Position numbers and translations under genes: made by a program. The notes under the pieces are model-generated. The model did not search any database, had not been told where the DNA came from, and saw only the letters and a program-made list of their open reading frames with translations. Below, piece by piece: positions 3,001 to 37,533 of a stretch of DNA of 64,000 nt. Within the stretch, counting starts at the first letter, position 1. Each line of letters opens with the position of its first letter. The stretch covers positions 3,690,001 to 3,754,000 of the forward strand of contig NZ_SOAU01000001.1 of the NCBI RefSeq assembly GCF_004364865.1, written 5' to 3'. The stretch comes from Ilumatobacter fluminis (GTDB lineage: Bacteria > Actinomycetota > Acidimicrobiia > Acidimicrobiales > Ilumatobacteraceae).

Positions 3001-3395
3001 CGCCGGATCAGCTTCTGGCGCTCGTTCGACGGGGTGTCGCCGGTGCGCATGGCGACCTCGGGCGCCGTGAACGGTTCGTCGATGCGCTCCGCGGCCAACC
3101 CGATGCCGGTGAGCGGGGCACGAAGGTTCTTCTCGACGTCGAACGCCAGGGCACGCAACGGTGAGATGTAGAGAACCCGCGTTCGATGGGTGCGCTCGTC
3201 GGGCTGCGGCGTCGTGACGAGCCGGTCGATCGAGGCCATGAAGGCCGTGAGCGTCTTGCCGGAGCCGGTGGGCGCGCAGATGAGGGTGTGTTCGCCGTTC
3301 GCGATGTGCGGCCAGCCCTGGATCTGCGGCGGCGTCGGCTCGGGGAACGACGACGCGAACCAGGCCCGAACCGCCGGCGAGAACGCCTCGAGCAC
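1..3395 (-). CDS. lhr: Lhr-type large SF2 helicase (C-terminus beyond window)
   Basis: ATP-dependent DEAD/DEAH superfamily II helicase of the Lhr family, which acts in DNA/RNA-hybrid processing and repair in the cytoplasm. About 1131 residues are visible; the reading frame is still open at base 1, so the C-terminal part is outside the window (actinobacterial Lhr is about 1500 aa). Visible motifs: Walker A APTGSGKT at residues 41-48, TTPESL (motif Ib), DEIH Walker B box at 165-168, the SAT motif (LSATQ), a helicase C domain with TSSLELGIDMG and QRIGRAGHQ, followed by the winged-helix and Lhr-specific regions. Start: a TAG stop lies in frame at 3420-3422, and the GTG at 3395 (MLEAFSPAV) is the first usable codon and matches the family N-terminus. 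It is transcribed away from the ABC-F gene side but on the same strand, 175 bp beyond two REP-like hairpins. No frameshift is seen. Confidence 0.93.
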   Translation of the reverse strand, partial: MLEAFSPAVRAWFASSFPEPTPPQIQGWPHIANGEHTLICAPTGSGKTLTAFMASIDRLVTTPQPDERTHRTRVLYISPLRALAFDVEKNLRAPLTGIGLAAERIDEPFTAPEVAMRTGDTPSNERQKLIRRPPDLLITTPESLYLMLTSSAAETLRGVETVIIDEIHAMATTKRGAHLALSLERLEEVTDRPPQRIGLSATQRPLEEIARFLGGFDDDGAARPVRIIDAGIRKPLDVQVIVPVDDMGAPGDAAAPMGQPGSGERRSSIWPSIYPRVLDLVLQHRSTIIFCNARRGAERLAAQLNELYEESHGEQADELVKAHHGSLAREQRVVIEDQLKRGELRAIVATSSLELGIDMGAVDLVIQVESPGAVSRGLQRIGRAGHQVGEPSKGSIFPKHRGDLIEAAVVTRRMIDGEIEHSKYLRNPLDVLAQQIVAHAAARTEVPVDDVARLVRRCANFHEITDDLLHNVLDLLAGRYPSEEFSELRPRLVWDRVNDVVRARDGSKRLAVTSGGTIPDRGLFGVFLPDGTRVGELDEEMVYESRPGETFLLGATTWRIEDISFERVTVTPAPGEPGKMPFWHGDRPGRPLELGRALGRFLRDVRELPDGEAMERLQTDYALDPLAAQNVLSYLAEQAAATGVVPDERTIVVERFRDEIGDWRVCVLSPFGTPVHAPWAMAIERRLVDQFDLPVETMYGDDGIVIRLPEAADQIDAEVFRIDPDEIDELVMSSLPQTSLFSARFRECAGRALLLPRRRPDQRTPLWQQRQRAADLLTVASKYPTFPILLETSRECLQDVFDVPALKEVLGQLQSRQVRLVQVDTASSSPMASSLLFNWIAQYMYEGDAPLAERRAAALALDRDLLRELLGAEELRELLDPGVLADVELELQHLADGRRARTADELHDVFRRVGDLTLAEVDARCEGDTGGAWVDDLVRERRVIEIGIGDDVRYAAAEDAARYRDAFGCSIPVGLPVAFTDPVPHPLESLVGRFARTHGPFLAADVARRFAAPVERVEGAIAALAADERVVRGEFRPGGVQREWCDVDVLRQLRRRSLAMLRREVEPVEPDALARFLPAWHGWGGVRRGLDGLVESIGQLAGAPLVASTVERDVLAGRVRDFTPAMLDELC

Positions 3396-3459
3396 GGGAT
3401 GATCAGCGATGATCCGAATCTACCCAGGGGGTGTCACAACCCCCGTCGCCCAGACGGAT

Positions 3460-3480
3460 GGTGTCGGATCCGTTGCGTCG
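3460..3480 (+). repeat. Solo REP-like half-unit, type B
   Basis: A 21-bp sequence beginning GGTGTCGGATCC and ending GCGTCG. It recurs with one mismatch at 31615-31635, and with three mismatches it forms the outer arm of the long inverted repeat at 33297-33377. It lies between lhr and the ABC-F gene, right beside the type A hairpin pair. No function is evident. Confidence 0.6.
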
Positions 3481-3483
3481 TCA

Positions 3484-3570
3484 GAACAGAAGGGGTCAGG
3501 CACCTTCTGTTCCCGACCGACTGCCACGCCCCGGGTTTGATGAACAGAAGGTGCCTGACCCCTTCTGTGG
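3484..3570. repeat. REP-like hairpin pair, type A (copy 1)
   Basis: Two stem-loop units in opposite orientation. Unit 1 (3484-3512) has arms GAACAGAAGG / CCTTCTGTTC around the 9-nt loop GGTCAGGCA. Unit 2 (3542-3570) has the same arms, with the last bases of the right arm degraded to TGG, around the reverse-complement loop TGCCTGACC. The pair is separated by 29 bp. Unit 2 ends on the base directly before the stop codon of the ABC-F gene on the minus strand, so on that transcript a hairpin would follow immediately after translation ends. The same unit occurs at 5249-5338 and 22272-23575. The paired, inverted arrangement is what is known for REP/BIME elements mobilised by RAYT (Y1-type) transposases; that link is an inference. 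Confidence 0.85.
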
Positions 3571-5178
3571 TCACAGGTCGATGGTTCTGGTGGTGCGGAC
3601 CCGGTCGAGGAAGGCCCGGTCGTGGGTCACGAGCAGGACCGTGCCGGGGAAGGTCTCGAGGGCCTGTTCGAGCTGCTCGATCGCCGGCAGGTCGAGATGG
3701 TTGGTGGGCTCGTCGAGCACCAGCAGGTTCGCCCCGTTCGCCATCAGTAACGCCAGTCCGGCCCGGGTGCGCTCCCCCGGTGACAGTGACGCCGTCTCGC
3801 GCTCGACGTGGTCACCCACCAATCCGAACTTGGCCAGCAGCGTCCGGGCGTCGGCCACGTCGAGGCCGGTCGCGTCGGTGAACGCCCGGATCAAGGTGGC
3901 GGCGCCGGTGAGCTGTGCTCGCACCTGTTCGATCTCGCCGACCACGACACCGCTCCCCCGTGTCACCTCACCGGCGGTCGGTTCGAGGCGTCCCGTGATG
4001 AGATCGATCAGGGTCGACTTGCCGGCGCCGTTGCGGCCGCGGATCGCGATCCGCTCGCCGTACTCGACCAGCAGGTCGATCGGCCCGAGGCGGAACGTGC
4101 CACGGTCGACCTCCGCCCCGGTCAGCCGGGCGACGACAGTGCCGCTGCGCTCGGCGGCGGGGATGTCGAGTCGCAGCTCCCACGCCTCTCGCGGCTTCTC
4201 GACCGTCTCCAGCCGGTCGATCGCCCGCTTGGTCTGGGCCGACTTGCCGGCCAGCTGCTCGGTCTGGTCGATCCGGAAGTTGCGGATGTGCTTGTCGTTC
4301 TCGCCCGATCGCCGCACCTTCGCCTGACCCTGTTGGGCCCACTCACGCTGGCGTTGCGCCCGCTGGGCGAGCGACTTGCGTTCGGTGTCGTACTCCTCGA
4401 ACCGTTCCCAGGCGTGCTGTCGGGCACGCTCGCGCTCGTCGAGATACGCCTGCCAGCCGCCGCCGTACACCTCGAGCCGGTGCGAGAACTCGTCGATCTC
4501 GGCGACGTCGGTCACGACACGGTCGAGGAACCGGCGGTCGTGGCTCACGAGGAGCACCGGCGCGCTCAACCCGAGCACCCACCGCTCCAGCCGGTCGAGC
4601 CCGTCGAGGTCGAGATCGTTGGTCGGTTCGTCGAGCAGGTACACGTCGAACCGCGACAACAACAGCGCCGCCAGGCCGGCCCGCGCCGCTTCGCCGCCCG
4701 ACAACTGGACGGTGGGCTGGGCGAGGGTGCGCTCGGGCAGGCCGAGGTCGTCGGAGACCGCGCCGACCCGGGCATCGAAGTCGGCGGCGCCGAGCGCGAG
4801 CCATCGCTGCAAGGCCCGGTCGTAGCGGTCGGCCGAGTCGGGTTCGTCGGCCGCCATTGCCTCCGTCGCCGCCGCGAGTTCGAGGTCGGCGCCGGCGACG
4901 CCCGTGCGGCGTCGGAGGAGATCGGCGACGGTCTCGCCGGTCCGCGAGGGTTCCTGGTCGAGCAGGCCGACGGTCGCGGTGGGTGGAGCGAGCCGCACCT
5001 CCCCCCGGTCGGGCGGGAGCAGACCGGCGGCTGCCCGGAGCAGGGTCGACTTCCCGACACCGTTCGGTCCGACGACGCCGATCCGGGCGCCGGGAGCGAC
5101 GACGAGCGACACGTCGTCGAGCAGGATGCGTGCACCGCGGGCGACGGTGAGTTCGTGGAGCGTCAGGGTGGCCGACAT
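3571..5178 (-). CDS. ABC-F family ATPase
   Basis: Soluble duplicated ATP-binding cassette protein of the ABC-F family. These have no membrane domain; they act at the ribosome E site in translation regulation or antibiotic protection. 535 aa, the usual size. Cassette 1: Walker A GPNGVGKST at 37-45, signature LSGGE at 159-163, Walker B DEPTND at 183-188, followed by the switch LVSHD. A charged linker rich in Arg/Glu/Gln lies at 245-330 (the P-site tRNA interaction motif region). Cassette 2: GRNGAGKST at 381-389, LSPGE at 465-469, DEPTNH at 489-494. The ATG at 5178 is preceded by a purine-rich stretch (CTCGAAAGG). REP-like hairpin pairs flank the gene on both sides, one abutting its stop codon. 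Subfamily and any resistance role cannot be decided from sequence alone. Confidence 0.93.
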   Translation of the reverse strand: MSATLTLHELTVARGARILLDDVSLVVAPGARIGVVGPNGVGKSTLLRAAAGLLPPDRGEVRLAPPTATVGLLDQEPSRTGETVADLLRRRTGVAGADLELAAATEAMAADEPDSADRYDRALQRWLALGAADFDARVGAVSDDLGLPERTLAQPTVQLSGGEAARAGLAALLLSRFDVYLLDEPTNDLDLDGLDRLERWVLGLSAPVLLVSHDRRFLDRVVTDVAEIDEFSHRLEVYGGGWQAYLDERERARQHAWERFEEYDTERKSLAQRAQRQREWAQQGQAKVRRSGENDKHIRNFRIDQTEQLAGKSAQTKRAIDRLETVEKPREAWELRLDIPAAERSGTVVARLTGAEVDRGTFRLGPIDLLVEYGERIAIRGRNGAGKSTLIDLITGRLEPTAGEVTRGSGVVVGEIEQVRAQLTGAATLIRAFTDATGLDVADARTLLAKFGLVGDHVERETASLSPGERTRAGLALLMANGANLLVLDEPTNHLDLPAIEQLEQALETFPGTVLLVTHDRAFLDRVRTTRTIDL

Positions 5179-5248
5179 GACGGCAGACCTTTCGAGGAGC
5201 GGGGCGGACGATGACTCGGCTCACAGACGCATGTGCCCAGTCTTGCAC

Positions 5249-5338
5249 GAACAGAAGGGGTCAGGCACCTTCTGTTCGCGCGGACTCGGTTCGCTGCGGT
5301 CGGTCGAGTGAACAGAAGGTGCCTGACCCCTTCTGTTG
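5249..5338. repeat. REP-like hairpin pair, type A (copy 2)
   Basis: Same architecture as the copy at 3484-3570. Unit 1 at 5249-5277 has loop GGTCAGGCA and unit 2 at 5310-5338 has loop TGCCTGACC, in opposite orientation and 32 bp apart. Arms are GAACAGAAGG / CCTTCTGTTC; the last base of unit 2 is changed to G. It lies between the start of the ABC-F gene (5178, minus) and the start of the helicase gene (5358, plus), that is, in a divergent promoter region rather than downstream of genes. Confidence 0.85.
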
Positions 5339-5357
5339 ATCCGACGCCTTTCGTCGG

Positions 5358-7097
5358 TTGATGCCCGGGCTTCGGCGGGGCAGAATCGACAGTCCCCTCT
5401 CCCCTCCCCTCACGTTGAGTTCGATCACCCTCCGACCCTGGCAGCGCGCGGCATTCGACCTGTTCGACGCGTCCGACGAGCCGGACTTCCTCGCGGTCGC
5501 GACGCCGGGCGCCGGCAAGACGACGTTCGCGCTCACCTGCGCCCGTGCCCAGCTATCGAAATGGGCCGCCGACGGCACCGCCCGCCGCCTCGTCGTCGTC
5601 GCACCGACCAGCCATCTCAAGGTGCAGTGGGCACTCGCCGCCCACCGGATGGGGCTCCAGCTCGACCCCGACTGGTCGCCCGACTACGGGCTGGCACGCG
5701 ACACCCACGGGCTCGTCACCACGTACCAACAGATCGCCACGGGCGCGGCGGCCTCGAAGCTGCAGGGGCTCTCCGCCGAGGGCATGGTGATCCTCGACGA
5801 GGTGCACCACGCCGGTCACGAGCGGGCGTGGGGTGACGGCATCGGCGCTGCGTTCGTCCACGCCGCACGTCGGCTGTCGCTGTCGGGTACACCGTTCCGC
5901 AGCGACGCCGCCCGGATCCCGTTCGTCCGCTACGACGTGACCGCCGAAGGCGACCAGGCCCACGCCGACTACACGTACGGCTACGCCGACGCCCTGCGCG
6001 ACGGCGGCGTCGTCCGCCCCGTGTACTTCCCGCGTGTCGACGGCCAGATGGAGTGGAGCACGCCCTCGGGTGACGTGTTGCGCGCGACGTTCCACGACGA
6101 GTTGGCCCGCGACCAGGTGTCGGCACGGCTCCGGACGGCCCTGAGCACCGAAGGCGACTGGATCGTCAACGTGCTCGGGCAGGCACACGAACGGCTCCGC
6201 ACGATCCGGGCCGAGCAGCCCGACGCCGGTGGCCTGGTCATCGCCACCGACCAGGAGCACGCCCAGGCGATCGCCCGCATGCTGCGCAACCGCTTCAACA
6301 CGACGGCCGAGGTCGTCGTGAGCGACGACCCGATGGCGTCGCGCAAGATCGCCGAGTTCGCCGGCAACGACCGGCCGTGGCTGGTGTCGGTCCGCATGGT
6401 GTCGGAGGGCGTCGACATCCCCCGCCTGCGGGTGGGTGTGTACGCCACCACGACGTCGACCGAGCTGTTCTTCCGCCAGGCCGTCGGACGCTTCGTGCGA
6501 TGGCAGGCCGGACGGTCGAGCCAGAAGGCGTACGTGTACGTGCCCGACGATCCGCGGCTGCGCAACCATGCGTTCCAGATCGCCGAGGCGCGCCGCCACG
6601 TGTTGCGACCGCCGGCGAAGCAGGACGACGACGAGATGTCACCGAACGGTGAACTCGACCGCCAGGTCGCCGTCGACGATGCCGCCGAACAGTTGGCCTT
6701 GTTCTCCGTCGTGTCGTCCACGGCGACCGGCGTCAAGTTCCACGCCGTGACCGAGACCGGCGTCGAGCACTACGACGACGAGCCCGATCCACCGACGCCC
6801 GACTTCGACGCCGACCCGGCCCTCGCGGTCGAACTGCCCGACGTGCCGACCGAGGCCGGTCTCGTCCCGTTCGGATCGCTCAGCGTCGCCGAGCAGAAGG
6901 ACGAGCTGCGAACCCGCAACGCCGACGTCGCCAAGCGGCTCGTCGACATGACCGGCTGGAACCACGCCCGGGTCCAGGGCGAGATGAACCGGCTGGCCGG
7001 GATCTCGAAGGTCAGTACGGCGACGGTCGACCAGCTGGAACGGCGTCTCCGCTACGCCGAGAGCTGGTTGCGCCGGTTGCGTCACCAGGGTCGCTGA
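5358..7097 (+). CDS. SF2 DEAD/DEAH-type helicase, DEVH box
   Basis: Putative DNA/RNA helicase of superfamily II. Motifs: a Q-like LRPWQ element near residue 26, Walker A ATPGAGKT at 48-55, VVVAPTSHL (motif Ia), DEVH box at 147-150, SGTPFR (motif III), and a C-terminal helicase domain with VSEGVDIPRL (motif V) and QAVGRFVR (motif VI). The last 100 residues are acidic and unassigned. The cellular role is not recognisable; related proteins are annotated simply as DEAD/DEAH helicases in actinobacteria. The start is uncertain: a TTG at 5358 is followed by ATG at 5361, while a TTG at 5415 (MSSITLRPWQR) would remove 19 proline-rich residues and leave the typical short N-terminus; none has a convincing ribosome binding site. 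The 3' end overlaps the convergent PAP2 gene by 86 bp. Confidence 0.85.
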   Translation: MMPGLRRGRIDSPLSPPLTLSSITLRPWQRAAFDLFDASDEPDFLAVATPGAGKTTFALTCARAQLSKWAADGTARRLVVVAPTSHLKVQWALAAHRMGLQLDPDWSPDYGLARDTHGLVTTYQQIATGAAASKLQGLSAEGMVILDEVHHAGHERAWGDGIGAAFVHAARRLSLSGTPFRSDAARIPFVRYDVTAEGDQAHADYTYGYADALRDGGVVRPVYFPRVDGQMEWSTPSGDVLRATFHDELARDQVSARLRTALSTEGDWIVNVLGQAHERLRTIRAEQPDAGGLVIATDQEHAQAIARMLRNRFNTTAEVVVSDDPMASRKIAEFAGNDRPWLVSVRMVSEGVDIPRLRVGVYATTTSTELFFRQAVGRFVRWQAGRSSQKAYVYVPDDPRLRNHAFQIAEARRHVLRPPAKQDDDEMSPNGELDRQVAVDDAAEQLALFSVVSSTATGVKFHAVTETGVEHYDDEPDPPTPDFDADPALAVELPDVPTEAGLVPFGSLSVAEQKDELRTRNADVAKRLVDMTGWNHARVQGEMNRLAGISKVSTATVDQLERRLRYAESWLRRLRHQGR

Positions 7098-22196: not shown

Positions 22197-22347
22197 GATG
22201 CGAACTCCTGAGAAATCGGACGGTTGAGCTTACCGGAGAGAAACCCGACGCGCTCCCGGCGCATTCCCACCGAACAGAAGGGGTCAGGCACCTTCTGTTC
22301 GCTGCGCCGGGACGTGAAGCCACCGACATCGGAACAGAAGGTGCCTG

Positions 22348-23559
22348 GCTGGATTCCAGTGGTCAGTGCAACACGAGTTGGTCGAAGACTTCTAATGGTG
22401 TCAGGAAGCTGTGGCGTTTGCGTGGCCGGTTGTTGAGTTTGTGAGCGATCGCGTCGAGTTGTTCTTGGCTGAACTGGGACAGGTCACTGTCTCTGGGTAG
22501 GTATTGGCGTAGCAGCCCGTTGATGTTTTCGTTGCTGCCTCGTTGCCAGGGAGCGTGCGGGTCGCAGAAGTACACCTTCATGTCGGTGGCCATCGTGAAC
22601 CGGCGGTGAGCAGCCATTTCGGTGCCGCGATCCCAGGTGAGTGTTCCCTGCAGCACGGCCGGCAGGGTTCGGACACGTGCTGCGATCGCGTCCGCGACGT
22701 GATCGGCTTGTTTGGTGCCAAGTTTGGACAGCATCACGAGTCCGGTGGTGCGCTCCACGAGCGTGCCGACCTGGGAGCCGTTGTTGCGACCCATGATCAG
22801 ATCGCCTTCCCAATGGCCAGGCACCAGACGGTCCTCGATGTCGTCGGGACGTTCCGCGATCGACACCAGGTCCGGGATCGAGGACTGGTCCCGGTTCCGA
22901 GCCGTGACCGGGCGGGCCCGGCGATGCTGACGTTGAGTACGTAGACACGCAGCGAGTTCTTTACGGAGCCCGCCCCGACCATGCACATACAACGCTCGAT
23001 AGATCGTTTCGGGGGACACTCGCATCGTCTCGTCGTCGGGAAACTCGAGCACCAGCCTGGCACTGATCTGTTCCGGCGACCACTGCTCGAGATCAAGCCA
23101 GCACGCAACCACCATCGCCAGCAACGGGAACTGCTCGAACTTGAACAACTTCGGTCGCTTCGCACGCTGCTGAGCGGCCAGATGCGCAGCAACCGCCCGA
23201 TACTCGTCGCGGCCACCGTTGTTGTTGATCTCACGGCCCACCGTTGAACGATGCCGATCAATCCGACGCGCGATCTCAGCGTTGGAAACCCCTTCCACGA
23301 TCCCACGAGAGATCTCTTCCCGGCCGGTCAACGTCAACCGGCTCACTGATGTGTCACGAACCTGTTTCTCCACCTCGGGATCATGAGCAATCCGACGCAC
23401 CGTTGTCGAAGACAACCCGAACCGTCGAGCCACCCCAGCTTGTGTGTGACCATCGGCCACCAACAACCACACCCAACAACGAACCTCATCAGCAACACGC
23501 TGCCTCGGCATGAACACCTCCAAAAGATCAAGGTGTTGCAACGACCCTCGGAACCCAGC
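22348..23559 (-). mobile_element. IS30-family insertion sequence, complete
   Basis: 1212-bp element. The ends are imperfect inverted repeats: left GCTGGATTCCAGTGGTC, right (read inward) GCTGGGTTCCGAGGGTC. It is flanked by a 3-bp direct repeat CTG (22345-22347 and 23560-23562), in the 2-3 bp range known for IS30. It carries one intact transposase gene on the minus strand. The target is the loop of a REP-like hairpin, and the pre-insertion site can be reconstructed exactly, so the insertion is recent relative to REP decay. Third-position base use is less GC-biased than in flanking genes. Confidence 0.93.
22363..23511 (-). CDS. IS30-family transposase
   Basis: DDE transposase, 382 aa from the ATG at 23511 (MPRQRVADEV). 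N-terminal helix-turn-helix segments: AGVARRFGLSSTTVRRIA near 27-44 and NAEIARRIDRHRSTVGREI near 77-95, the second being the IS30 HTH. Catalytic core: first Asp in GHWEGDLIMG, second Asp in LTWDRGTEMA, Glu in GSNENINGLLRQYLP, all with IS30 spacing. Intact from start to stop, so probably functional. The stop lies 15 bp inside the left end of the element. Confidence 0.95.
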   Translation of the reverse strand: MPRQRVADEVRCWVWLLVADGHTQAGVARRFGLSSTTVRRIAHDPEVEKQVRDTSVSRLTLTGREEISRGIVEGVSNAEIARRIDRHRSTVGREINNNGGRDEYRAVAAHLAAQQRAKRPKLFKFEQFPLLAMVVACWLDLEQWSPEQISARLVLEFPDDETMRVSPETIYRALYVHGRGGLRKELAACLRTQRQHRRARPVTARNRDQSSIPDLVSIAERPDDIEDRLVPGHWEGDLIMGRNNGSQVGTLVERTTGLVMLSKLGTKQADHVADAIAARVRTLPAVLQGTLTWDRGTEMAAHRRFTMATDMKVYFCDPHAPWQRGSNENINGLLRQYLPRDSDLSQFSQEQLDAIAHKLNNRPRKRHSFLTPLEVFDQLVLH

Positions 23560-23573
23560 CTGACCCCTTCTGT

Positions 23574-24239
23574 TCAGGTGAGGGTTCGGTCGAGGAGGTC
23601 GACGAGCATGCGGGCGGTGGCACCCCAGATGGTCTCGTCGTCGAGCTGGAAGAAGTGCAGGACGTGGTCGGTCGGGCCCAGCTTCCAGCGTTCGCTGTGG
23701 TACGTGTCGGGTCGGGTCAGCTCGGCGAGCGGGACCCACAGCACTCGGTCGACCTCCATCGTCTGACCGGTGAGTTCCGGTCGGGCGGGGAGATCGATGG
23801 TGGCGACCTTCGGGACGATGTAGCTGCGGCTGGCGACGGTGTTGAGGTGCGACAGCTCGCCCCGGACCGCCACCCCCGCCGGTTCGAGCCCGACTTCTTC
23901 GTGGGCTTCACGGAGGGCGGCTTGGGTGGGCGTCTCGCCAGGATCGATCCGACCGCCGGGGAAGGAGATCTCGCCACGGTGGTTCCGCATCTCCCACGAT
24001 CGGCGGGTGAGCAGCACTTCGGGCCCCTCGGCACCGTCGGCCAGGGTGACCAGAACGGCGGAATGCTTCGCCCCGGCGAACGCCGGCAGGAGCGGCTCGT
24101 CGACCTCGGGCACGACCGACAGCACGCGGTCGAGCGTGGTCGTCGCGCCGGGTTCCCACCGCGGGGCGGGCCCGTACTCCCAGTCGGCGGGGCGGGGAAC
24201 GATCTGCTCGCCCCCGGCCCGGTACCCGGGCAGCGTCAC
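23574..24239 (-). CDS. Nudix hydrolase, CoA diphosphatase-like
   Basis: 221-aa Nudix hydrolase. The Nudix box is complete: GGRIDPGETPTQAALREAHEEVGL (catalytic helix with REAHEE) around residues 96-118. It is preceded by LLTRRSWEMRNHRGEISFPGG, which matches the extra upstream motif of CoA pyrophosphatases (LLTxRSxxMRxHxGxxSFPGG). Predicted to split CoA or acyl-CoA into phosphopantetheine and 3',5'-ADP. Start ATG at 24239, one base after the stop of a 55-aa reading frame, so the two are probably co-translated. The stop codon overlaps the REP-like unit that hosts the IS30 element. Confidence 0.88.
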   Translation of the reverse strand: MTLPGYRAGGEQIVPRPADWEYGPAPRWEPGATTTLDRVLSVVPEVDEPLLPAFAGAKHSAVLVTLADGAEGPEVLLTRRSWEMRNHRGEISFPGGRIDPGETPTQAALREAHEEVGLEPAGVAVRGELSHLNTVASRSYIVPKVATIDLPARPELTGQTMEVDRVLWVPLAELTRPDTYHSERWKLGPTDHVLHFFQLDDETIWGATARMLVDLLDRTLT

Positions 24240-33273: not shown

Positions 33274-33296
33274 CGCTCGACGACAGGATGCAGCAA

Positions 33297-33377
33297 CGAA
33301 TGGGGTCGGATACGTTTCGTCGCTCGAAGGGCTGCGAGCCTTCCGACTGTCCGACGAAACGTATCCGACCCCGTTCG
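33297..33377. repeat. Long inverted repeat, type B, between convergent genes
   Basis: Arms of 26 bp at 33297-33322 and 33352-33377 pair with a single mismatch; the core is GGGGTCGGATACGTTTCGTCG-like (positions 33302-33322). The 29-nt centre itself contains a small GC hairpin. It lies 24 bp after the VOC stop and 14 bp before the stop of the alpha/beta hydrolase on the other strand, so it may serve as a terminator for both. Confidence 0.85.
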
Positions 33378-33390
33378 TCGTGTCGGCGCG

Positions 33391-37334: not shown

Positions 37335-37427
37335 GTCGAATGATCCCCAATCGTTCGAGTTGTCCCCCAGGTGGCCCTGATCCTTGCCGCGATCGACCAG
37401 GACAGTCAAACCGTACGGCCCGTCGGC

Positions 37428-37498
37428 TGGGGTCAGACCTCAACCGACACGCCTCGAGGACCACCGATCCCCTCGATGTCGGTTGAGGTCTGACCCCA
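37428..37498. repeat. Perfect long inverted repeat, type C
   Basis: 22-bp arms at 37428-37449 and 37477-37498 pair perfectly (arm starts TGGGGTCAGACCTCAACC) around a 27-nt centre. It lies between the start of the CoxL-type gene (37334, minus) and the stop of dusB (37534, minus), so it could terminate dusB transcription. The outer GGGGTCAG matches the core seen in type A and B repeats. Confidence 0.9.
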
Positions 37499-37533
37499 TC
37501 CGACATCAACCGACCAGGATCGACCGGCTCGGG

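What the first reader, a model, noticed from the sequence alone, without database searches (positions are those of the whole stretch)
3484..5338. Paired inverted hairpins (type A REP-like) in three intergenic regions
The same 29-bp stem-loop (10-bp arms, 9-nt loop) occurs six times in three pairs (3484/3542, 5249/5310, 22272/22332), each pair with loops in opposite orientation and 29-32 bp apart. Arms and loop are almost invariant despite separation by up to 19 kb, so they spread recently or are maintained. The pairing matches BIME-like units moved by RAYT transposases, none of which is in the window.
Basis: partly seen in the sequence, partly recalled or inferred. Interest (0 to 1): 0.65.

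Follow-up and report, generated by a model that had tools for sequence, protein, structure and literature searches.

The report
Mobile hairpin pairs between bacterial genes
Short mirror-image DNA hairpins, nearly always in pairs and often at the ends of genes, occur about 140 times in this bacterium; they look like passenger elements of a single-strand-cutting transposase whose matching gene was found in a related species, and another related species often carries a different hairpin family at the very same spots.

Summary
Five of the six 29-nt units are intact; the sixth (22332) is split by an IS30-type element. The genome (4.78 Mb, genus Ilumatobacter) carries 142 copies; 55 fetched sites hold 48 convergent pairs, mostly 57-58 nt apart, depleted from coding DNA and often abutting stop codons. 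They are REPIN-like pairs but not GTAG REPs: the invariant part is GGGGTCAGGCACC, which fits the GGGGWSAS motif printed for 'TIRYT' tyrosine transposases. No matching transposase was found here; the only Y1 gene carries a different unit family. A congener with 130 copies has a Y1/HUH gene flanked on both sides by this very pair. The 17-mer core is multicopy in other phyla too, where part of the related transposases carry GGGGTCAG units at their ends. New to me: of 18 orthologous sites compared with a second congener, 8 hold a pair of another family (B'), 2 a third family (C), 6 the same family or its remnants, 2 no pair. In the reverse direction 2 of 2 tested sites held no A pair. So slots are often, not always, reused. 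Mobilisation by the transposase is inferred, not shown.

The parts
3484..3512 (+). unit A, left member of pair 1
3542..3570 (-). unit A, right member of pair 1; next to the stop codon of the gene 3571-5178 (-), two ABC_tran domains, by my reading an ABC-F type ATPase
5249..5277 (+). unit A, left member of pair 2
5310..5338 (-). unit A, right member of pair 2
22272..22300 (+). unit A, left member of pair 3
22332..22347 (-). first part of the right member of pair 3, cut by an IS30-family element
23560..23575 (-). remaining part of the right member of pair 3, beyond the IS30-family element
22348..23559 (-). IS30-family element inserted in the loop of the unit, CTG on both sides
3453..3481 (+). 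single B'-type unit (GGTGTCGGATCC core) directly outside pair 1, probable remnant of an older pair
5339..5357 (-). B'-type half unit directly outside pair 2, probable remnant of an older pair
33296..33378 (.). pair of sister family B (GGGGTCGGATAC core), 29-nt spacer
37422..37504 (.). pair of sister family C (GGGGTCAGACCTCA core), 27-nt spacer

Best explanation
Each pair is a REPIN-like non-autonomous mobile element of the GGGGTCAG kind: two inverted 29-nt hairpin units around a spacer of nearly fixed length and free sequence. In single-stranded DNA the pair folds into one long hairpin. A Y1 (HUH tyrosine) transposase of the RAYT/TIRYT group recognises the GGGGTCAG(G) core at the two ends of the element, cuts and rejoins it as single strand, and so copies it into gaps between genes, often at stop codons. 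The matching transposase gene is present in a congener and was not found here, so this genome's population is probably orphaned, or served by the distant Y1 gene still present. Shown: the units, pairing, hairpin potential, intergenic bias, and the transposase gene flanked by the same pair in a congener. Inferred: recognition, cutting, movement.
For: 142 copies, 0 for the reversed pattern. 48 convergent pairs, start spacing 56-63, 35 of 48 at 57 or 58. Pairs 1 and 2 fold as one long stem in ssDNA, z -8.5 and -8.9. The two units of a pair share the same change at the same position 10 times against 1.1 expected, at most 6 in 500 shuffles. In congener G112 (130 copies) a Y1 gene of about 300 aa with NHYH and YIHRNP motifs is flanked on both sides by complete unit-A pairs. 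Of 10 Ilumatobacter Y1 loci tested (of 11; L032 was left out) 3 have inverted same-family GGGTC[AG]G flanks on both sides and 8 a unit in a flank, reversed motif 0 and 0; of 30 loci of other genomes 7 and 20, reversed motif 0 and 9. With the stricter GGGG[AT][CG]A[CG]: 2 and 4 of 10 (reversed 0 and 0), 7 and 22 of 30 (reversed 0 and 3). An empty site in this genome, window 34437, for a G112 pair together with a B-type half unit.
Against: No movement was observed. The cognate gene was not found in this genome, although 92 of its 142 copies have an exact 17-mer core, more than I would expect of a long-orphaned neutral family. G067 (81% complete) also shows no such gene and has 44 copies. Only 3 of 10 and 7 of 30 Y1 loci pass the strict two-sided flank test. 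Twenty changes are in one unit of a pair only, and no change is compensated inside a single unit's hairpin (38 uncompensated). Spacers are almost unrelated between pairs (mean identity 0.397, shuffled 0.379), which copying of whole pairs does not predict unless copies are old.
Confidence: 0.8

Rival explanations
1. The pairs are kept by selection as working RNA or DNA hairpins at gene ends (terminator, mRNA 3' stabiliser, or protein-binding site), and are not mobile any more.
For: 24 of 40 gene 3' ends facing the 40 intergenic sites lie within 3 nt of the unit, against 2 of 39 gene 5' ends. RNA of pair 1 folds with z -8.2 and -7.7 on the two strands. Cores are near invariant while spacers are not. 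In G067, 13 of 18 slots hold a pair or array of some family, 3 a remnant and 2 nothing recognised.
Against: No terminator-like site was found in 3300-5600, no Rfam family reached its threshold in the window, different families sit at the same place, 7 of the 10 genomes of the genus (this one counted) have no or one copy, and the unit frames a transposase gene.
Confidence: 0.3
2. The population is not orphaned: the remaining Y1 gene of this genome (4552098-4552832) moves unit A in trans through the shared GGGGTCAGG core.
For: Its own downstream units read GGGGTCAGGTG.., sharing the first nine bases of the core with unit A; its frame is open, with NHYH and YVALNP motifs.
Against: It is only 33% identical to the G112 gene and no unit A was seen in its locus. 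By the literature section read, each such gene goes with its own repeat family (PMC6006769).
Confidence: 0.2
3. The change of family at shared slots is only independent insertion into the limited spots that tolerate insertions, not a linked process.
For: Units abut stop codons, a limited set of spots. Sites without a pair exist: 1059511 in G067, G101 and G054 at pair 2. In the reverse direction, a B' pair and a C pair of G067 both face sites without A, B or C in this genome.
Against: B' pairs occur once per 61 kb in 669.9 kb of G067; B' at 8 of 18 slots has P about 2e-10 with one possible slot per kb and 4e-5 with one per 5 kb. Half units of other families abut A sites in 8 of 110 flanks against 6 of 550 more distant stretches.
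Confidence: 0.37

Closest known systems
REPINs / BIMEs with GTAG REPs (Pseudomonas, Enterobacteria)
   Same: Inverted pairs with fixed spacing, long single-strand hairpin, paired changes, less conserved spacer, mostly extragenic, linked to a Y1 transposase gene (passages of PMC3116915).
   Different: No GT[AG]G foot; the invariant GGGGTCAGGCACC forms the top of the stem and the loop of the unit.
TIRYT genes and TIRtrons with GGGGWSAS terminal repeats (Di Nocera 2013)
   Same: GGGGTCAG fits GGGGWSAS; repeats at both ends of a Y1 gene; some of those repeats form dimers and families in a genome (PMC3733652, section read).
   Different: Those authors saw moderately abundant families in some genomes and thought TIRYTs less productive; here about 140 copies, and a 17-mer core found in several phyla.
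TnpA-Y1 subclass 2.1 (Quentin 2018; Bertels group 1 in its table)
   Same: Class 2 signature Y...NP, NH[YF]H, C-terminal extension, GGGGTCAG flanks (PMC6006769).
   Different: That paper reports no REP-like sequences near subclass 2.1 genes; here a pair population goes with such a gene. Pfam shows no HTH in the five Ilumatobacter proteins scanned at E 0.1.
REP orthoswitch (Nunvar 2013)
   Same: Related strains differ in the repeat class at orthologous RAYT genes, and new variants may partly replace old ones (passages of PMC3686654).
   Different: Here different families are seen at the same dispersed, non-transposase slots.

Membership tests
REPIN / GTAG REP | GT[AG]G tetranucleotide at the foot of the unit hairpin | tested here: not met
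   the 29-nt unit read in both directions holds neither GTAG nor GTGG
REPIN / GTAG REP | inverted pairs of fixed spacing that fold as one hairpin | tested here: met
   48 convergent pairs in 55 sites, fold z -8.5 and -8.9
REPIN / GTAG REP | mobilised by a cognate RAYT | not testable with these tools
   only linkage in G112 shown
CGTC REP | CGTC (TGTC, CCTC) tag at one end of the unit | tested here: not met
   unit consensus GA[AC]CAGAAGGGGTCAGGCACCTTCTG
TIRYT / TIRtron repeats | GGGGWSAS motif in inverted repeats at both ends of a Y1 gene | tested here: met
   G112 gene, GGGGTCAG at both ends
TIRYT / TIRtron repeats | such a gene, with the same repeats, in the genome that holds the repeats | tested here: not met
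   one Y1 gene found in G000, flanked by another family
TnpA-Y1 subclass 2.1 | HUH NH[YF]H and Y...NP motifs | tested here: met
   NHYH and YIHRNP in the G112 protein
TnpA-Y1 subclass 2.1 | C-terminal HTH domain | tested here: inconclusive
   none at E 0.1 in 5 of 5 Ilumatobacter proteins; Bac_DnaA_C in the 1 other protein scanned, of the Geomonas genome G173
NCBIfam REP_Tyr_transpos (NF047646) | curated cut-off of 80 bits | tested here: not met
   46 to 59 bits in 6 of 6 Ilumatobacter proteins scanned, of 11 Y1 matches in the genus
intrinsic terminator | hairpin followed by a T-run | tested here: not met
   0 terminator-like sites in 3300-5600, pairs 1 and 2; flanks of pair 3 read only

The most novel reading that the evidence does not exclude
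The gaps at gene ends are long-lived slots whose occupant is rewritten in place: a new palindrome family swaps into the position of an older pair, through the transposase cutting the shared GG[GT]GTC core of the resident, so that genomes switch family (B' in one species, A with AA arms or CC arms in others, C at some) while positions stay. This would be a concerted, transposase-driven conversion of dispersed 29-nt repeats. (Lowered from 0.27 after the reverse-direction check, where 2 of 2 sites held no pair.)
Probability: 0.25. Interest if true: 0.75.

Novelty: new variant of a known kind. Interest (0 to 1): 0.52.

Why it matters
As far as the papers seen here show, REPIN work has rested on GTAG repeats. 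A second tag, GGGGTCAG, with paired populations and linked Y1 genes in several phyla, would give a large transposase group, for which one survey found no REPs, a candidate substrate. Slots whose occupant family differs between species would allow a direct test of whether such repeats are mobile parasites, rewritten markers, or selected gene-end hairpins.

Tried and rejected
Transposase remnants between close pairs at 3038862-3040901: tblastn with six relatives found none (a seventh query was in a wrong frame). A remnant of the G112 transposase in this genome: besides the Y1 gene at 4552098, the 22 other matches up to E 10 lie in the C-terminal part of the query, whose coding end overlaps the unit. 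At the orthologous place G000 has a different stretch between the same flanks. Rfam at gathering score: no match. Solved structures at E 0.01: no sequence match. Spacers derived from the target site: not supported by the two empty sites looked at, window 34437 and 1059511. Spacer test for in-place swapping: inconclusive; mean local scores 8.3 at ten shared-A sites, 7.25 at eight A/B' sites, 5.7 and 6.5 for non-orthologous ones, and 8.7 to 10.4 simulated for 60 to 65% identity, the four-fold-site identity of one gene being 0.63. Printed copies of the 13-mer core in papers: none; one search listed two papers with GGGGTCAG, on vertebrate chromatin by their titles.

Rows dropped from the slot count of 18: 683795 (contig end), 3823659 (low-complexity hit), 3040821 (one flank only, nothing recognised). 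Kept with one flank: 1234442, 1344156. Assigned by eye: 244468 (C-like), 3967000 (one B' core in the gap, its partner in the matched flank), the three remnants. Sites with A in both species are over-represented, because G067 loci and contigs were partly chosen for holding unit A; in G112, 6 of 6 two-flank sites hold A, but those loci were chosen for holding A. The C count (0) is an artefact of a nearly palindromic pattern, so the combined B'+C probability printed there is not used. Gene ends come from a rough codon-usage gene finder of my own. laid some loci in the wrong orientation and is replaced.

Full report
What is there. The window lies at 3690001-3754000 of a single-contig genome of 4,775,416 bases. 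The genus is Ilumatobacter: congener G112 shares a contig and its unit positions with a record titled Ilumatobacter sp. HKST-UBA13, and G067 with one titled Acidimicrobiaceae bacterium NAT239. The units at 3484, 3542, 5249, 5310 and 22272 are as described. The unit at 22332 is cut in its loop by an IS30-family element and goes on at 23560.

Genome-wide. The 17-mer AAGGGGTCAGGCACCTT occurs 68 + 74 times with up to two mismatches, 92 of them exact, 0 for the reversed pattern. The listing stops at 100 places, so I fetched a part: 55 sites with 124 units. They hold 48 convergent pairs; 37 sites are plain pairs, 7 single units (one of them pair 3 of the window, whose partner is split), 11 longer arrays. 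One array has 1 + and 11 - units with a 59-nt period. Spacing is 56-63, 35 of 48 at 57 or 58. The conserved stretch ends sharply six bases outside the 17-mer. A rough gene finder puts 15 of 55 sites mostly inside coding DNA against 1835 of 2120 random stretches; around the 40 intergenic sites 24 of 40 facing gene 3' ends lie within 3 nt of a unit against 2 of 39 5' ends.

Pairs are the unit of history. The pair folds as one long hairpin. The same change at the same position of both members occurs 10 times against 1.1 expected; 20 changes are in one member only, and none is compensated inside a single unit. Spacers keep length, hardly sequence: mean identity 0.397 against 0.379 for shuffled ones. 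Conserved ends, a less conserved spacer and paired changes were reported for REPINs (passages of PMC3116915).

Transposase. One Y1_Tnp gene was found in this genome, 272 aa, flanked by units of another family, GGGTCAGGTG. In the genus 8 of 10 genomes have a Y1 match. In G112, which has 130 copies of unit A, one of the two Y1 genes is flanked on both sides by complete unit-A pairs, the downstream one overlapping the end of the frame. In G067 (44 copies) the only Y1 match has a stop codon inside and lies among family C units. So genes seem to go with their own families, and this genome has lost, or never had, the partner of unit A. At the place where G112 has the gene, G000 has the same flanks around a different stretch.

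Wider distribution. Unit A (up to one mismatch) was not found in the 140 sampled genomes of the family outside the genus. Yet an exact scan of named genomes found the 17-mer in many distant organisms (119 stretches; the scan stopped at its limit). Of 43 genomes counted, each chosen for having a match, 19 have at least ten copies with up to one mismatch, 17 of them not G067 or G112: for example Solirubrobacter soli 118, Heyndrickxia ginsengihumi 71, an Acidobacteria MAG 38, an Omnitrophica MAG 28, Geomonas propionica 14; the reversed pattern gives at most 1 in any. I searched 30 of the 43 with the Ilumatobacter transposase alignment; 25 of 30 have a relative, 75 matches in all. Of the 30 loci returned, 7 have inverted same-family GGGTC[AG]G flanks on both sides and 20 some such motif in a flank; reversed motif 0 and 9. 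With GGGG[AT][CG]A[CG] it is 7 and 22, reversed 0 and 3. Some of these loci are cut by contig ends. In 159 genomes of the phylum drawn evenly, this one counted, 19 hold a GGGGTCAG...CTGACCCC pair and 8 hold five or more; the reversed control rings in 4, with 1 or 2 each. Whether the shared 17-mer is one by descent is not shown. Phyla are judged from the record titles and from memory.

Slots. I compared the A sites with stretches of G067 (669.9 kb of 4.4 Mb, plus loci). Of 18 informative sites, 3 hold a full A pair, 3 an A remnant, 8 a B' pair (GGTGTCGGATNC core), 2 a family C pair or array, 2 no pair, one of these a clean empty site. Window pair 1 is shared with G067, but with CC/GG in place of AA/TT in the arms; at window pair 2 G067 has a B' array, G101 and G054 nothing, and G079, whose next gene differs, a pair close to the type beside its own transposase. 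At 3564563 G000 and G112 have A and G067 B'. B' pairs are rare in G067 (11 in 669.9 kb), so chance co-location is unlikely (P about 2e-10 to 4e-5 by the number of slots assumed). In 8 of 110 flanks an A site is abutted by a unit or half unit of B, B' or C, against 6 of 550 more distant stretches (P 6e-4); junctions such as GGGGTCGGA|ACAGAAGG suggest that A entered older pairs. The reverse direction gives less: two G067 pairs could be placed in G000; the C pair faces a gap of 16 bases, and the B' pair faces other sequence with none of these units. Spacer comparison does not decide between rewriting in place and fresh insertion.

Against my reading: no mobility was seen; the cognate gene was not found here although most cores are intact; strict two-sided flanks are a minority of transposase loci; the slot comparison rests on one congener and 18 sites, part of them on contigs chosen for unit A; the two reverse tests showed no reuse.

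Literature. PMC3733652 (abstract, two result sections, passages) names TIRYTs with GGGGWSAS repeats and says that GTAG REPs often supply a stop codon. PMC6006769 (abstract, one section whole, one in part, passages) places 20 of 26 TIRYT examples in subclass 2.1, found no REPs beside that subclass and asks for further analysis. PMC3686654 (passages) describes the orthoswitch. PMC8266576 and PMC8049555 were seen in passages only. An old gene-conversion hypothesis for REPs (Higgins 1988) was seen only as a reference title. A search for Ilumatobacter with 'repetitive extragenic palindromic' gave nothing; one for REPIN, RAYT, gene conversion and concerted evolution listed nine papers, of which I read passages of some.

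Verdict. A real, sizeable population of REPIN-like pairs of the GGGGTCAG kind, apparently orphaned in this genome, with a cognate transposase gene in a congener, and with an unexpected change of family at shared slots.

Noticed in passing
window 22348-23559: IS30-family element sits in the loop of a unit A hairpin with CTG on both sides; insertion sequences found in such repeats are known elsewhere (ISPpu9 in the abstract listed).
   Followed up: partly
window 33296-33378 and 37422-37504: Two more pair families (B, C) of the same layout; family B core GGGGTCGGATAC recurs in the part of the genome listed.
   Followed up: partly
L043 1954-2615 (G000 4355451-4356116): Tandem array of 1 + and 11 - unit-A copies with a 59-nt period, while G067 has a B' array at the same place.
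   Followed up: partly
L031 1250-2430: The only Y1 transposase gene found in the genome is framed by tandem units of 36 and 32 nt of a fourth family (GGGGTCAGGTG); two pairs of it are seen elsewhere in the partial list (1471451, 1475702).
   Followed up: no
G067 site orthologous to G000 1009723: A collapsed single palindrome that looks like a central deletion of an A pair, like the 'double foot' REPs described in PMC6006769.
   Followed up: no
L032 (G112): A second Y1_Tnp match, much closer to the Pfam model (235 aa frame, 144 bits), without GGGGTCAG units in its locus, perhaps an ordinary IS200-type gene.
   Followed up: no
L297, G000 near 4631440: Where G067 has a B' pair, this genome has a different perfect inverted repeat around GACTTCAACCATGGTTGAAGTC.
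   Followed up: no
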